NCBI GenBank assembly: GCA_030646995.1 | Contig: JAUSKF010000004.1 | Location: 148,404-181,176, forward strand | Length of the DNA stretch: 32,773 bases | Source: a bacterium | GTDB taxonomy: Bacteria > Patescibacteriota > Minisyncoccia > UBA6257 > WO2-44-18 | Direction: 5' to 3' | Part shown: positions 17,440 through 23,971 of the stretch, piece by piece | How the letters are laid out: every line of letters begins with the position of its first letter | Position numbering within the stretch: the stretch's first letter is position 1 | Made by a program: the position numbers and the translations under genes | The notes under the pieces: generated by a model | What the model was told of the DNA's origin: nothing | Database searches by the model: none | The model's input: only the letters and a program-made list of their open reading frames with translations

Positions 17440-18588
17440 TTATTTATCACCACCAGATATTGCCTCTAGCCCATTGCGTGCACGCTCAATAAGATCATCA
17501 TACGTCAGCACTTCGATACCATGAAAATACGACATTATCCGCCGCAGATATTTTGGATGAACATCCGAAGTCGTCTTAACCCCATCGACTCCAGAGGCGA
17601 CGCTTCTTCTTCCAATCAAAAGGATTCCCTTCGGTTTGTAATATCGTCCATAAGTATCCGGTAATATCTCCTCGCCGCTTTTATCATCTTTCTCCTGACG
17701 ATACTCGCTGGTATAAAACTCAAGATATGCCATTAACTGGCCTAGAGCTTTAGCTGTGTCGTCTGCAATGTACTGGCGACCCATTTTATCAGTCCTTAAA
17801 ACCTCAGCCGTTGGAAGTTTTATCTCTAATATATCGCTGAGCCCATCGATTCTTTTTAAGCGCCGATCGGGAATGCCGGAAGAGCCAGCTCCGCGGATAT
17901 CGGCGCTTATATATTCTGGACCAAAAATCCACGGCGCCGAGGTGAGAAATTCTTGTATTACCAACTCATTAGCGCCTGAAGTGTTAATCAATTTTTCAAA
18001 TTCGGTAATTACTGAGAACTTCTCCTCAATTTTTGTTCGTATCAAACCTTTCTTAATCAGATCTGGAAGGTCAAGTCCTGCCGTAAGATATCCATCCTGG
18101 AACAATTTAAGCAATATCTCCTTCCCAGCCTCGTCTTGAGCAAGGGCAACTAATTTAGCCTGTAGATCAGGGTCAAGTTTCAAATTGGCATCGAAACTAA
18201 GACGCCCGGCTGCTACCGCCGATAGATTTGTCTTCTGTAAAAAATCAATAAAGTCACGAAGTACAACTAGGTTTTTGGTGTCAATTCGGATTTCGACCTT
18301 ACTATTCGGGTCAAGCACTCCCTTTTTCTTTTCATACCTTTCGATTTTTAGCTCAACCACCTGCCCACGTTGAGCAATATAGGCGGCTCTTATCTGTAGC
18401 CGAGCACCCTCATATAAAACCCGACTCCCGCCTTCCGGCTGATCTGCAACAACGCTGAAATACTTCCCGCTTTGACCCCGAAAATCTGATGCATATATTT
18501 TCCCGGGCAATTTTCCAGCGACATAGTCAGGTGCTGACGCCTCAACCAGTTTCATGCCCCCTATCTCTTTCGGTTGAATGTTTTCCAT
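17440..18588 (-). CDS. sduA: Shedu anti-phage nuclease SduA-like (DUF4263)
   Basis: The 382-residue protein ends in a DUF4263 domain (about 195-370), the nuclease domain of the single-gene Shedu defence system. Key features are the preceding FLTSAPWIFGPEYI block, typical of DUF4263, and the PD-(D/E)xK-type core IPDRR...SDILEIKLP, with Asp252, Glu255 and Lys257 counted from this start, then Gln284 in LGQLMAYLEF. The N-terminal half (about 1-190) is a variable domain, as in other Shedu proteins, and probably sets the trigger. The start is ATG 18588; an in-frame ATG at 18618 adds 10 hydrophobic residues. It is the last gene of a minus-strand block of restriction-type genes. Confidence 0.85.
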   Translation of the reverse strand: MENIQPKEIGGMKLVEASAPDYVAGKLPGKIYASDFRGQSGKYFSVVADQPEGGSRVLYEGARLQIRAAYIAQRGQVVELKIERYEKKKGVLDPNSKVEIRIDTKNLVVLRDFIDFLQKTNLSAVAAGRLSFDANLKLDPDLQAKLVALAQDEAGKEILLKLFQDGYLTAGLDLPDLIKKGLIRTKIEEKFSVITEFEKLINTSGANELVIQEFLTSAPWIFGPEYISADIRGAGSSGIPDRRLKRIDGLSDILEIKLPTAEVLRTDKMGRQYIADDTAKALGQLMAYLEFYTSEYRQEKDDKSGEEILPDTYGRYYKPKGILLIGRRSVASGVDGVKTTSDVHPKYLRRIMSYFHGIEVLTYDDLIERARNGLEAISGGDK

Positions 18589-18649
18589 AGCGACAAAATA
18601 ACACAAAAGACTGCTCATTGAAAATGTGGCCGAAATTTAGGGCAGAAAA

Positions 18650-19501: not shown

Positions 19502-20215
19502 CTATCCCAGTAACTTTTTGATTTGTTCTTGTACCGCTTTGTCGGCCTTCAGAACAGGTCTAGGAGATGCCACCGCGATAGCCCTCCCTTTTGCGTCAAA
19601 CACATAGTCATCCTTATAAACACCATTGCATACCTGACATTGAGGAATAGAATTTTCTAACGATAAAGGCTTAAGAGGGTTCATGTGTCCCTGCTGTAGC
19701 GTCGTTCTTTTATCGGGCTCTAAAAAATTAGGCTTCCTTTCTTGCGAGCCGCATGTTGCACAACGAAAATCGTATACCGCCTTAAGCGATTCGAAATCTT
19801 TTGCGGCTAACCTGCCAGCTCTTTTCAGCGACTTAAAAAGAAATGATGGCTTTGGACTTTCTGTAGTAATTAGTATGTGATATCCACTAGGTACAGTCTC
19901 TGATTTCTCGGGCAGTTTATCGCCACGATTTAGGATATACCATCCATCACCAGCTAAATGACGCACCTGCTGGTCTTTGCCAATTTTCGGCATCACAGTC
20001 TCCACGAAAGATGAGATAGTATCTTTATGTACGGGTTTGCCCTGATATTTTCTTAAAAAAATTAACCACAAAGCTTTTGTGGTATTCCATTTTGGAAACC
20101 TTACTCCATATTTTGCAAGATATGTTGCGTGTTCTACTTCAAGCTTCCTATACCAATCCTCAATCTCCTCTGGAGACATAAAGGTATGGCTGCCCTGTTT
20201 ATCTATTTTTTTCAT
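19502..20215 (-). CDS. HNH endonuclease, likely type II restriction enzyme
   Basis: The 237-residue protein has a C-terminal HNH domain (about 150-215): a zinc pair CATCGS, then GHMNPLKPLSLENSIPQC with the catalytic His and Asn, a second pair CQVCN, and DDYVFDAKGR. The N-terminal 145 residues form an unassigned, probably DNA-recognising domain. Its start lies 17 nt inside the 3' end of the methyltransferase gene, the tight coupling usual for a restriction-modification pair, so it most likely cuts the site that the methyltransferase protects. The recognition sequence cannot be deduced. Confidence 0.85.
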   Translation of the reverse strand: MKKIDKQGSHTFMSPEEIEDWYRKLEVEHATYLAKYGVRFPKWNTTKALWLIFLRKYQGKPVHKDTISSFVETVMPKIGKDQQVRHLAGDGWYILNRGDKLPEKSETVPSGYHILITTESPKPSFLFKSLKRAGRLAAKDFESLKAVYDFRCATCGSQERKPNFLEPDKRTTLQQGHMNPLKPLSLENSIPQCQVCNGVYKDDYVFDAKGRAIAVASPRPVLKADKAVQEQIKKLLG

Positions 20216-21188
20216 GAGACTTTAATCTTTCCGCTGAGGCTTCAAAATATTTTTTTTCAATCTCAAAACCGATAAATTTCCGGCCAATACCTAGAGCGGC
20301 AACACCAGTTGTTCCACTTCCCATAAATGGATCGAGAACAATTTGCCCCGGAACACTAAATATTTCGATAAGACGACTCATCAAATCTACAGGCTTTATT
20401 GTCATATGGTCAATAGTTTTCCGGGCTCCGGTTGTTTTTTTGTAGTTAAAAATCGTTGTCGGTTGATCGTCAAAGTCAGTTTTAATAAGTCCCGTCTTCC
20501 ATTTCATCCAATTATCTACAAAGGTTCCGTCTTTTGGTTTTTGAGCCAAAAGAATTGCCTCAAATTTTGGACGTAATTGTGGCGTCTTTCTATTCCCCAT
20601 CTCCTCAATAATGCTTCGCTTTCTATCGGGATCAATTTTCATTTTATTAACAAAGTGATTTTGAGTGAACGCCTTTCCTTGTCCGCCACTATGCTCCCAT
20701 GCCAACATATCGCGTATTTCAAATCCGGCATTTTCTGCAGCAATGGCAATTCTATGGAATAATCGGCCTTGCGAGAAGGAAACCAAGAAACCACCTGGCT
20801 TTAAAACACGCGAAGCCTCAACGGAGACTTGATTAAAAAATTTCTCAAGTCGTATCCCTTGCTCAGGATCGAACTTCATACCTACCGGAAGTCCTCCAAT
20901 CGTGCCCGCCTTAGATACTTTATTTTTTAAGCTCTTATCTGACCAATTGTTATCCATCCCATCAAGAAAATAGGGCGGATCTGTAGCAATAAAATCGACG
21001 CTATTGTTTTTAAGCAAACGAAAAGCCTCCATGCAATCAGAGTTATAAATAGTGGCATTGCCTATCTTCTTAATGGGGTTCTCCATCGCCTTGGCTACTT
21101 CTCCAATTATAACAGTTTCGATAGCTGAACTATCTCTCAAACCAAAGTTGGGGTCTTTAAAAAAATCTAATGAAAGTTGTTGGATCAT
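20199..21188 (-). CDS. Beta-class site-specific DNA methyltransferase (N4/N6)
   Basis: This enzyme transfers a methyl group from SAM to an amino group on cytosine or adenine in DNA. The catalytic motif IV DPPY is near the N-terminus (ATDPPYFLDG, about residues 68-77) and the SAM-binding motif I comes late (VLDPFMGSGTTGVAALGIGRKFIGFE, split here as two runs: VLDPFMGSGTTG and IGRKFIGFE). This is the beta-class order. The ATG at 21188 is preferred over the TTG at 21197. It overlaps the HNH nuclease gene. In the upstream gap (21198-21319) I see only an imperfect dyad around GTCGGACGAGTCG (about 21209-21223) and no gene. Confidence 0.93.
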   Translation of the reverse strand: MIQQLSLDFFKDPNFGLRDSSAIETVIIGEVAKAMENPIKKIGNATIYNSDCMEAFRLLKNNSVDFIATDPPYFLDGMDNNWSDKSLKNKVSKAGTIGGLPVGMKFDPEQGIRLEKFFNQVSVEASRVLKPGGFLVSFSQGRLFHRIAIAAENAGFEIRDMLAWEHSGGQGKAFTQNHFVNKMKIDPDRKRSIIEEMGNRKTPQLRPKFEAILLAQKPKDGTFVDNWMKWKTGLIKTDFDDQPTTIFNYKKTTGARKTIDHMTIKPVDLMSRLIEIFSVPGQIVLDPFMGSGTTGVAALGIGRKFIGFEIEKKYFEASAERLKSHEKNR

Positions 21189-21319
21189 GATAAACAAAAA
21201 ATCGGAAACGACTCGTCCGACTTAGTGAAAGTATGTTTCAACTTTCTATTAAACCGGAGATTATTAGGTTTATAATTGGTTGAGTATCTCCGATAATGAC
21301 GAGTCTTATTAACTAACGC

Positions 21320-21997
21320 TTAACTTAATTTGGGTTTCTTGATGACATATATAACTTTGCCGCTGACGAAATAATTTTCGTTTTGGCCGATATAAATTGG
21401 GGGGTATTCTTCGGTCGACTCCGAGAGAAGCATGATTAGCTTATTTTTTACGTCACGGAAAAATTTCTTGATGTTGGCGACGTTGTCTATAATAGAAAGC
21501 ACATAGTCGCCGTTGTGGGGGCTTTTCTGCTTCGGGTCAACAATCACATAGTCCCCTTGCTCAATAGTGCGCCCGGCGATTTTTGCTCTGTTCATAGAAT
21601 TTCCAAAAGCCTTGATGGCAAAAAAATCGCCGATAGCTTTCAAGCCAAGGACGTTTTTAGAAATCTTTAAGTAGCCCTCAATGTTTTGATCGGCAAAAAT
21701 AGTGGCCGGGCCGCAATTGGCCGTGCCTAATACCGGTATAGATAGAAGCGAAGAGATGGCGCCTTTTCCGCCAGAGGCGGGTAAACCCGCAGGCGCGAAT
21801 AACCCACTCTTTACTCTGGTAATTGTCTTATTCTGCCAATCAACCGAGATTAGGCCCTTTTTCTCCAACTGGAGAATGTGGTGCTTAATTTTCTGCGGAT
21901 ACTGCTCCCCCACCATCTTGGCGATCTTCCGGAGGCTGCTTTTTGAAAAATCAATCTTCGTGAGAATTTTTAATAATTTAGTTTGTAGGTCGTGCAT
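21320..21997 (-). CDS. LexA/S24-type self-cleaving repressor
   Basis: A 225-residue protein with an N-terminal winged-helix-like DNA-binding region (about 5-60) and a C-terminal S24 (LexA/UmuD) peptidase domain (about 88-220). The Ser-Lys dyad is Ser134 (FGNSMNRA) and Lys177 (NVANIKKFF). The predicted self-cleavage bond is Cys95-Gly96 (GTANCGPAT), the Cys-Gly type also used by UmuD. It probably represses SOS-like or local genes and is cleaved on DNA damage. The linker (about 65-80, LPASGGKG) is encoded by two GC-rich hairpins (21768-21792) and looks like an inserted palindromic repeat. The promoter ends 6 nt before the ATG. Confidence 0.87.
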   Translation of the reverse strand: MHDLQTKLLKILTKIDFSKSSLRKIAKMVGEQYPQKIKHHILQLEKKGLISVDWQNKTITRVKSGLFAPAGLPASGGKGAISSLLSIPVLGTANCGPATIFADQNIEGYLKISKNVLGLKAIGDFFAIKAFGNSMNRAKIAGRTIEQGDYVIVDPKQKSPHNGDYVLSIIDNVANIKKFFRDVKNKLIMLLSESTEEYPPIYIGQNENYFVSGKVIYVIKKPKLS

Positions 21998-22176: not shown

Positions 22177-22201
22177 TAAGAATGCAGTACAACTGAATAG
22201 G

Positions 22202-22356
22202 AGGTATCTAGAGTGGTGGCGAGAGAATTGGCTCAATGACCCACCCGGCAACCTGCGAAAGTAAGGTGCCAAATCCAACCAAGGGAGCGCTCTGCTCTCA
22301 CGGAAAGATGCATAGTCGAGCGTCTTTCCTCATTACAAACGAGGATTTTTTATTTT
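22202..22356 (+). ncRNA. SAM-I-like (S-box) riboswitch with expression platform
   Basis: The aptamer core matches S-box signatures: GAGTGGTGGCGAGAGAATTG, GGCTCAATGA, CCCGGCAACC and AGGTGCCAAATCC, with P1 formed by GTATCT (22204-22209) and AGATGC (22306-22311). After it, GGAAAGATGC (22302-22311) can pair with GCGTCTTTCC (22320-22329). Alternatively TCCTC (22327-22331) pairs with GAGGA (22341-22345), followed by a T tract reaching the ATG at 22357. These two pairings exclude each other. GAGGA is also the only Shine-Dalgarno, so SAM binding should shut off the gene by termination, by hiding the ribosome site, or both. The switching logic is inferred. Confidence 0.82.
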
Positions 22357-22650
22357 ATGGAACAAAATTTTATTTTGATTCAGGACGGTAAAAAGAAGAT
22401 TTATGAGATACCAGAAGAAGATATCGGCAAGTTTAAGCTTCTAGGCAGCGCGGGCGGCTTCTCGATCGGTTTTTGTTTGTACATCGGCAGTAAACACTCC
22501 GAGAACTTCCTTGACCGAGTATGCGGCTACCGTATTGAAAAGAATGGCTTCGGAGAAATGATGAACGAAGCGGCTCGGCAGGCAGGGCTTCCGGCGCGCC
22601 ATCAAGAGAATATAACCGTCAGCTTTTACGAGGAAAAAACAAACAATTAA
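22357..22650 (+). CDS. Unknown small protein under SAM-riboswitch control
   Basis: A 97-residue protein, soluble, mixed alpha/beta, beginning MEQNFILIQDGKKKIYEIP. No family or catalytic motif is recognised; it has two Cys (in GFCLYIG and RVCGYRI). It starts directly after the terminator-like T tract of the S-box leader. S-box targets are usually methionine, cysteine or SAM metabolism or transport genes. This protein resembles none of those, so the target is unusual. Confidence 0.75.
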   Translation: MEQNFILIQDGKKKIYEIPEEDIGKFKLLGSAGGFSIGFCLYIGSKHSENFLDRVCGYRIEKNGFGEMMNEAARQAGLPARHQENITVSFYEEKTNN

Positions 22651-22670
22651 AACAAATAAAATCTAAATAT

Positions 22671-22979
22671 ATGAATGAAGAAAAAGTATCGTGCGAAATA
22701 CCGAGGGGGTTATATAAGTGTGAGCTGTGTGGCGAGTATAAAGGAGGGGTAATGGAGAAAGACTTAGATTGGGACGGATTTTTTAATAAAGAGGAGGCGG
22801 AAAAGAGCGAGGAATATCTCGGCGTGTCTTGTCTTTGCGATGGCATCTTATGCCTAAAGTGCAAAAAAAATAAGATCCATAGACCCATCTCTAATTCATA
22901 CTATGCTGACACCAATACAATTGAGCACCACCCGTATTTTTCGGGGATGATGGGCTGCGCTGAATGCAGGGAGAAATAA
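22671..22979 (+). CDS. Unknown small protein with several CxxC zinc-binding pairs
   Basis: A 102-residue protein with three CxxC pairs: CELC (residues 17-20), CLKC and CAEC, plus single Cys in VSCEI and SCLCDG. This suggests one or two structural zinc sites. It follows the 97-residue gene by 20 nt on the same strand, so both are probably controlled by the SAM leader. A weak hairpin (CCCGT/ACGGG, 22980-22994) after the stop may be its terminator. Confidence 0.7.
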   Translation: MNEEKVSCEIPRGLYKCELCGEYKGGVMEKDLDWDGFFNKEEAEKSEEYLGVSCLCDGILCLKCKKNKIHRPISNSYYADTNTIEHHPYFSGMMGCAECREK

Positions 22980-23044: not shown

Positions 23045-23548
23045 TCAAAGAGAAAATCCGAATGATCTAGAAGCTTCCCTGTCTTCAACTTTTTCAGACC
23101 TGCACTGCTCACCTTCCGCTAATCCAAGTAGGGTCAGCTCAAAAAAGAATAACTTCCACCCTTCGGCCACGCCAACTTCGTCACCTTTAAGTATGCCCGT
23201 CGCAGAACCGACTAATACGCCATTCACAAATTTATCTCCTGTGTATGAGAGGGCGGGTATTTTTATGGTAATGACCACATTGCTATCACCGCCATACAAG
23301 TTCCTGTAGGTCATACGCCACTCCGCTTTGTTTTTGGAAAGAGAACGGAGGTCGGGGTTGTATACCGCACTTCCCATAGTTCTTGACCCATCAGGTTCGT
23401 CTCGAAAGTTAGCAAAAACAATATTCTCTGGGAACATCCACATTGCATCCTTGCCTTCTATGGATAAGTGTTGCGGGCAGTACCCAAATAGCACTCCTCG
23501 CTTGACTGCTTCTTTCGCTTTCTTTTTGAACTCTTCGGTAATTTTCAT
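23045..23548 (-). CDS. Unknown soluble protein (167 aa)
   Basis: A 167-residue protein starting MKITEEFKKKAKEAVKRGV. The middle part is beta-rich (WMFPENIVFANF, NVVITIKIPALSY) and ends in an acidic, low-complexity tail. No family is recognised. It follows the 41-residue membrane ORF and the structured RNA at 23785-23971 on the same strand, so the RNA may be its regulatory leader. Its last bases are in a convergent gap with the zinc-knuckle gene. Confidence 0.65.
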   Translation of the reverse strand: MKITEEFKKKAKEAVKRGVLFGYCPQHLSIEGKDAMWMFPENIVFANFRDEPDGSRTMGSAVYNPDLRSLSKNKAEWRMTYRNLYGGDSNVVITIKIPALSYTGDKFVNGVLVGSATGILKGDEVGVAEGWKLFFFELTLLGLAEGEQCRSEKVEDREASRSFGFSL

Positions 23549-23610: not shown

Positions 23611-23736
23611 TTAGTATCGGACCAGTTTCAGACCAAGCGACATTCCGAGCAGAAAGAGTATTCCCAACTCCATCAGCTTGTAGGTCATCCTGATACAGAA
23701 CTTTTTCCAGTATTTTTTGTGATTGAATTTCTTCAT
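23611..23736 (-). CDS. Small membrane peptide (41 aa)
   Basis: A 41-residue ORF with a very basic start (MKKFNHKKYWKKFCIRM) followed by one hydrophobic helix (LMELGILFLLGMSLGLKLV). It resembles small single-pass membrane peptides. It lies about 50 nt downstream of the terminator of the structured RNA and upstream of the 167-residue gene, on the same strand. Expression is unproven. Confidence 0.45.
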   Translation of the reverse strand: MKKFNHKKYWKKFCIRMTYKLMELGILFLLGMSLGLKLVRY

Positions 23737-23784
23737 ACTGATTTTTTATTTATTCCCCAGCGCTTTTGTTGCGGGCCAGGCAAA

Positions 23785-23971
23785 CAAAAAAGCGGCTAAG
23801 AGATTTAATCGAGCTCGACTAGCTCAATGAAATCTCCCAACCGCCTTTTAGTGGTTAGTCGTTTATATCTTGTGGCTCCCCGCAGATTTCCCAGATTGCC
23901 TACCCTTTCGGGAGAGATAAACGGTCCGAATTAATGGCTCGGACTACCCTTTTTATAATCTATCGAGGTAC
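23785..23971 (-). ncRNA. Unidentified structured RNA with attenuator-like terminator
   Basis: A promoter at 23978-24006 would start RNA near 23971. The RNA then forms a TCCGA/TCGGA hairpin, a 7-bp stem CGTTTAT/ATAAACG (23917-23923 with 23860-23866) enclosing CTCTCC/GGGGAG, a CCC-GAAA-GGG tetraloop hairpin and a GCA/TGC arm. The 3' part has a 15-bp terminator stem (23830-23844 with 23792-23806) followed by TTTTTT. Its 5' arm GGTTGG can instead pair with the upstream CTAACC, so two states are possible, as in a riboswitch or attenuator. No known class fits. A terminator-like stem also exists on plus (GTCCGA/TCGGAC then CTTTTT), so strand is not fully certain. Confidence 0.55.

What the first reader, a model, noticed from the sequence alone, without database searches (positions are those of the whole stretch)
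22202..22979. SAM-I riboswitch in front of two unknown small genes
The leader carries the S-box core (GGCTCAATGA, CCCGGCAACC, GGTGCCAAATCC) and two mutually exclusive hairpins. The off-state hairpin uses GAGGA, which is both the 3' arm of a terminator-like stem and the only Shine-Dalgarno. Known S-box targets are methionine, cysteine and SAM genes. Here the targets are a 97-residue protein and a 102-residue CxxC protein that match none of these. They sit in an accessory region about 1 kb from a SAM-using DNA methyltransferase, so they might link SAM supply to modification or uptake. That link is a hypothesis.
Basis: partly seen in the sequence, partly recalled or inferred. Interest (0 to 1): 0.75.

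Follow-up and report, generated by a model that had tools for sequence, protein, structure and literature searches.

The report
SAM riboswitch controlling unknown small genes
A standard S-adenosylmethionine (SAM) sensor sits in front of a small gene of unknown function in an ultrasmall bacterium, and the same sensor is attached to that gene family and to the family of the gene next door in several distantly related bacteria of the same class, which points to an undescribed response to SAM shortage.

Summary
The SAM-I (S-box) aptamer is real. Rfam RF00162 matches window 22201-22314(+) at 48.8 bits (cut-off 44.4), E 2e-8, and it is the only SAM-I in the genome. The two overlapping hairpins are there. 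Folding fits a SAM-off switch that hides the Shine-Dalgarno; the 5-bp terminator-like stem is weak.

In a sample of the class, 56 of 84 SAM-I sites sit before metK. This genome's metK has no SAM-I. The 97-aa protein (P1) matches no Pfam, NCBIfam, PHROG, PADLOC or PDB family. P1 homologues in two other bacterial families are also directly behind SAM-I (68.4 and 35 bits), so the leader-gene pair recurs. The 102-aa CxxC protein had no homologue in 244 genomes of the order.

In four other genomes F2 lies directly behind SAM-I.

The proposed link to DNA modification is unproven. F2 genes often lie near DNA methyltransferases; the other two SAM-I/P1 loci do not. Both proteins look cytosolic, so they are unlikely to be transporters. 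Best reading: an ordinary SAM-I switch driving uncharacterised small proteins when SAM is low. Function unknown.

The parts
22201..22314 (+). SAM-I (S-box) riboswitch aptamer
   Evidence: RF00162 48.8 bits, GA 44.4, E 2e-8, model 1-108; only SAM-I in the genome
22302..22329 (+). Hairpin A, anti-sequestering (SAM-free, ON): GGAAAGAUG/CGUCUUUCC, takes up the 3' strand of P1
   Evidence: -14.2 kcal/mol, present in the MFE
22327..22345 (+). Hairpin B, UCCUC/GAGGA (SAM-bound, OFF): hides the Shine-Dalgarno 22341-22345; followed by U6
   Evidence: -4.8 kcal/mol; forms when P1 is forced; too weak for a clear terminator
22357..22650 (+). P1, 97-aa cytosolic alpha/beta protein of unknown family; direct riboswitch target
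   Evidence: 9 homologues at E<=1e-4 in the same class, two behind SAM-I; AF2 pLDDT 83.8, no PDB fold match
22671..22979 (+). P2, 102-aa Cys-rich protein (CxxC pairs, probable metal site), 20 nt behind P1
   Evidence: no homologue in 244 genomes of the order; only sub-threshold family hits
23045..23548 (-). F2, 167-aa beta-rich protein, convergent with P1-P2; its family is a recurrent SAM-I target elsewhere
   Evidence: phmmer E 3e-14 to 1e-32 to genes directly behind SAM-I in L047, L052, L066, L097; AF2 pLDDT 76.1
23776..23946 (-). Second structured leader ending in a long hairpin plus U6, upstream of a 41-aa ORF and F2; not SAM-I; no Rfam match
   Evidence: larger fold z -3.45; homologue in same-family genome G004, E 3.7e-31; 3 pairs with changes on both sides
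20199..21197 (-). Context: N6/N4 DNA methyltransferase (type II-like), adjoining a possible HNH protein at 19502-20215
   Evidence: PF01555 E 4.9e-39; PADLOC MTase_II 5.5e-52
21320..21997 (-). Context: LexA/S24-like repressor-protease
   Evidence: PF00717 E 4.5e-17

Best explanation
A canonical SAM-I riboswitch represses the P1-P2 mRNA when SAM is plentiful. The SAM-bound aptamer helix frees UCCUC to pair with the GAGGA Shine-Dalgarno, which blocks translation and perhaps causes some termination. When SAM falls, hairpin A takes up both the 3' strand of that helix and UCC, and the proteins P1 and P2 are made. P1 is a small cytosolic protein of an undescribed, patchily distributed family that has repeatedly come under SAM-I control in this class of Patescibacteria. 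It most likely acts in an accessory response to SAM or methionine shortage. Shown here: the aptamer, the alternative hairpins by folding, and the recurrence of the leader-P1 and leader-F2 pairings. Inferred: SAM binding, the direction of control, and the role of the proteins.
For: RF00162 hit above cut-off. Mutually exclusive hairpins and the effect of forcing the closing helix. Of 84 SAM-I loci in the class, 56 precede metK, so the RNA is very likely a working SAM sensor in this group. P1 homologues behind SAM-I in L039 (68.4 bits) and L031 (35 bits, E 9.6e-5); by chance at about 2e-4 per gene, 2 of 9 has p about 1.5e-6. F2 genes in four genomes directly behind SAM-I; an unselected sample of 130 genomes found F2 only in the window genome and in two genomes where it follows SAM-I. 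No transmembrane segment in P1, P2 or F2. Own metK lacks SAM-I.
Against: Seven of nine P1 homologues have no SAM-I leader, so P1 does not depend on it. L031's aptamer is below the Rfam cut-off. P2 is not conserved. SAM binding was not measured. The unconstrained MFE favours hairpin A by about 8 kcal/mol, so switching relies on ligand energy and co-transcriptional folding. The chance estimates treat related genomes as independent.
Confidence: 0.72

Rival explanations
1. The SAM-I-controlled small proteins serve restriction-modification or defence islands. When SAM is too low for methylation, for example because a phage SAM lyase consumes it, they are switched on and restrain self-restriction or act in defence.
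For: The window SAM-I lies 1.2 kb from a DNA methyltransferase, near a Shedu-like gene (SduA C-terminal PF14082, E 4.6e-11) and an HNH candidate. Four of five F2 loci lie within 6 kb of an N6_N4 methyltransferase, post hoc p about 3e-6. In G250 the order is SAM-I, F2, type III mod, res.
Against: Accessory genes cluster anyway. SAM-I sites near methyltransferases: 5 of 26 not at metK against 1 of 26 at metK, p 0.19. The other two SAM-I/P1 loci are not near one, and G364 (P1, L039) has none, nor has G525 (F2). In G323 the methyltransferase is a ParB fusion beside a recombinase, apparently part of a mobile element. No PADLOC hit to P1 or F2.
Confidence: 0.12
2. The proteins take part directly in SAM or methionine economy: salvage, a sulfur carrier, or modulation of MetK or methyltransferases.
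For: Other SAM-I targets in the same class include a Cys/Met PLP enzyme (L007), a ThiS-like sulfur carrier (L017) and a cobalamin-adenosyltransferase-fold protein (L050, homologue L093). SAM-I targets elsewhere are methionine genes (PMC3766115).
Against: No enzyme family or fold match for P1 or F2. They are not beside metK. Most P1 homologues are free of SAM-I.
Confidence: 0.4
3. The riboswitch is a relic of a lost metK or met operon; P1-P2 are passengers that landed behind it and gain nothing from SAM control.
For: metK lies on another contig without SAM-I; P1 and P2 are patchy.
Against: The aptamer core, pseudoknot and switching hairpins are intact. The same gene family sits behind SAM-I in two other bacterial families, and F2 in four.
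Confidence: 0.12

Closest known systems
SAM-I / S-box riboswitch (RF00162)
   Same: Sequence and structure score above the curated cut-off; kink-turn, pseudoknot and SAM-site motifs; off-type platform
   Different: Target is an unknown small-protein gene, not a methionine, cysteine or SAM gene; the platform looks translational rather than a strong terminator
SAM-I-metK leaders of Patescibacteria (56 of 84 loci here)
   Same: Same aptamer and group of organisms
   Different: Those control SAM synthetase, often through a terminator; here metK is elsewhere and has no SAM-I
SAM-I-P1 loci L039 and L031
   Same: Aptamer directly before a P1 homologue (39% and 38% identity in the family alignment)
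   Different: Strong intrinsic terminators; L039 has another 85-aa gene in front of P1; no P2

Membership tests
SAM-I riboswitch (RF00162) | Covariance-model score above the gathering threshold | tested here: met
   48.8 against 44.4 bits, E 2e-8
SAM-I riboswitch (RF00162) | P1-P4 core, kink-turn, loop-2/J3-4 pseudoknot and SAM-contact motifs | tested here: met
   Full-length alignment; UUGG/CCAA pseudoknot, covarying in other loci (by eye)
SAM-I riboswitch (RF00162) | Expression platform that formation of the closing helix switches | tested here: met
   Hairpins A and B overlap; forcing the helix forms B over the Shine-Dalgarno; by computation only
SAM-I riboswitch (RF00162) | Binds SAM, discriminates against SAH | not testable with these tools
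   Needs in-line probing or ITC
SAM-I riboswitch (RF00162) | Controls a methionine, cysteine or SAM gene (typical, not defining) | tested here: not met
   P1 and P2 match no Pfam, NCBIfam, PHROG or PADLOC family above threshold
P1 family (defined here) | Gly34, Cys40, Phe51 and Phe90 conserved; C-terminal FY/FF-E motif | tested here: met
   10-sequence alignment; the His before Cys40 found in most members is Phe in the window copy
F2 family (defined here) | Invariant FP.N..F, G.A.Y.PD and M.Y.N.Y motifs | tested here: met
   Alignments A5 and A6

The most novel reading that the evidence does not exclude
Patescibacteria carry a SAM-starvation response built from several unrelated, undescribed small-protein families that have each come under SAM-I control, some of them in restriction-modification or defence islands, where low SAM would be read as failing methylation or as phage SAM-lyase attack.
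Probability: 0.12. Interest if true: 0.85.

Novelty: new member of a known kind. Interest (0 to 1): 0.55.

Why it matters
The riboswitch gives each unknown gene a testable condition: it should be expressed when SAM is low. I found no paper on SAM riboswitches in Patescibacteria in the open library searched. About a third of SAM-I sites in this class precede genes other than metK, including at least two recurring unknown families present side by side in this window. Parasitic, auxotrophic cells that depend on a host for methionine may respond to SAM shortage with proteins nobody has named.

Tried and rejected
A phylum-wide sample found P1 only in this genome. Foldseek for P1 and F2 gave no match with E<=0.001. 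PDB sequence searches gave nothing below E 0.3. I looked for SAM-I in front of the window's F2 gene and found none; the resemblance CTAGCTCAATGA at 23820 is on the wrong strand and part of a terminator hairpin. IMG/VR matches to the second leader's core were chance hits in coding DNA. F2 was absent from IMG/VR; the P1 leader was absent from plasmids and the second leader from phages.

Full report
Naming. P1, P2 and F2 below are proteins; the closing helix of the aptamer, which riboswitch papers also call P1, is written 'closing helix'.

Observation. A scan of the window with all Rfam families gives one riboswitch: RF00162, SAM-I, at 22201-22314(+), 48.8 bits against a cut-off of 44.4, E 2e-8, over the whole model. 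A genome-wide search finds no second SAM-I site in this 97.8% complete, 0.75-Mb genome. The loop-2 pseudoknot pairs as UUGG/CCAA here and as CUGG/CCAG, AUGG/CCAU and CUAG/CUAG in other loci (read by eye), which supports a maintained tertiary contact.

Expression platform. Two hairpins overlap by three bases. Hairpin A (22302-22329, -14.2 kcal/mol) consumes the 3' strand of the closing helix. Hairpin B (22327-22345, -4.8 kcal/mol) contains GAGGA, the Shine-Dalgarno of gene P1, 11 nt before ATG 22357. The unconstrained fold has A; forcing the closing helix gives B. This is the logic of a SAM-off switch. Hairpin B is much weaker than the terminators at the same place in other SAM-I leaders (-11 to -14 kcal/mol), so sequestration of the ribosome site is the more likely mode; a contribution from termination is not excluded.

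What SAM-I controls in these bacteria. SAM-I was found in 27 of 101 near relatives and 61 of 368 genomes of the class. I read the downstream gene at 84 loci. At 56 it is metK. The other 28 loci lack metK in the stretch read, and most precede small genes with no name; at least one of the 28 (L045) is cut off by a contig end. Exceptions with a recognisable product are a Cys/Met PLP enzyme (L007), a ThiS-like sulfur carrier (L017) and a cobalamin-adenosyltransferase-fold protein (L050, with a homologous two-gene arrangement in L093). In this genome metK is on contig 3 and has no SAM-I.

P1. The 97-aa protein matches no Pfam, NCBIfam, PHROG or PADLOC family. Profile searches found nine homologues in the class and none elsewhere in a phylum sample. 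Two lie directly behind SAM-I: L039 (68.4 bits, an 85-aa gene between) and L031 (35 bits, below cut-off but E 9.6e-5). They come from two other bacterial families. With about 2e-4 SAM-I sites per gene, two of nine has a chance of about 1.5e-6, treating homologues as independent. The other seven have no SAM-I core upstream. The family has four invariant residues, including Cys40. AlphaFold2 gives a compact alpha/beta model (pLDDT 83.8) without a PDB match. No transmembrane segment.

P2. The 102-aa CxxC protein has no homologue in 244 genomes of the order. It is probably co-transcribed with P1 (20-nt gap), but it is not part of the recurring association.

F2, found here. The convergent gene at 23045-23548(-) is homologous to the first gene behind SAM-I in L047, L052, L066 and L097 (phmmer E 3e-14 to 1e-32). 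Three of these contigs are named Patescibacteria UBA2163, Candidatus Portnoybacteria and Candidatus Moraniibacteriota; a fourth relative is in a Verrucomicrobiales MAG, where cmscan at gathering thresholds finds no SAM-I. In a sample of 130 genomes not chosen for SAM-I, F2 appears only in the window genome and in two genomes where it follows SAM-I. In the window F2 itself has no SAM-I. Instead, a 41-aa ORF and a structured leader (23776-23946, -) precede it. That leader recurs in a same-family genome before an unrelated gene, with three pairs changed on both sides, and ends in a strong terminator-like hairpin. It looks like a second attenuator of unknown class.

The methyltransferase link. The N6/N4 methyltransferase is about 1.2 kb from the aptamer (measured to the PF01555 domain), divergent. 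Across 26 genomes with a SAM-I not at metK, five have such a methyltransferase within 6 kb; one of 26 metK genomes does (p 0.19). F2 loci do so in four of five cases (post hoc p about 3e-6), in one case as SAM-I, F2, type III mod, res. The other two SAM-I/P1 loci do not. Shared residence in accessory islands explains this as well as a functional link does.

Verdict. The riboswitch is ordinary; its targets are not. The two-gene unit and the uptake idea did not hold; the modification idea remains open for F2 and is unsupported for P1.

Noticed in passing
window 23776-23946 (-): Structured leader with a long terminal hairpin plus U6 before a 41-aa membrane-type ORF (23611-23736, -) and F2; homologous leader in G004 (L118, about 1456-1650, -) before an unrelated 122-aa gene; no Rfam match. 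Candidate new attenuator or riboswitch.
   Followed up: partly
L050 and L093, downstream of SAM-I: Conserved two-gene SAM-I operon whose first product has a cobalamin-adenosyltransferase fold (PF01923 E 3e-24 in L050) and whose second is unknown.
   Followed up: partly
L016 and L028 (G051 contig 9): Two SAM-I aptamers in tandem, about 230 bases apart, before small unknown genes.
   Followed up: no
L034 1330-1900 (-): A P1 homologue and a small Cys-containing gene, each preceded by the same sequence ttgacaaatccatcctaaattgctaatctatcggcgg: repeated promoter or cassette-like array.
   Followed up: no
L079 and L089 (G423); L057 and L071 (G409): Genomes with two SAM-I sites, one at metK and one at an unknown small gene.
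   Followed up: no
L104 2404-6979: ParB-methyltransferase fusion, two genes that look like small and large terminase subunits, and a serine recombinase close to a SAM-I-F2 locus; a similar ParB-methyltransferase/terminase-like set is in L105: mobile elements near these loci.
   Followed up: partly
window 17440-18618 (-): Shedu-like protein (SduA C-terminal PF14082 E 4.6e-11; PADLOC SduA E 1.2e-19) in the same accessory region.
   Followed up: partly
window 22199-22239 (+): AGGAGG followed by an 8-codon GTG frame inside the aptamer; probably chance.
   Followed up: no
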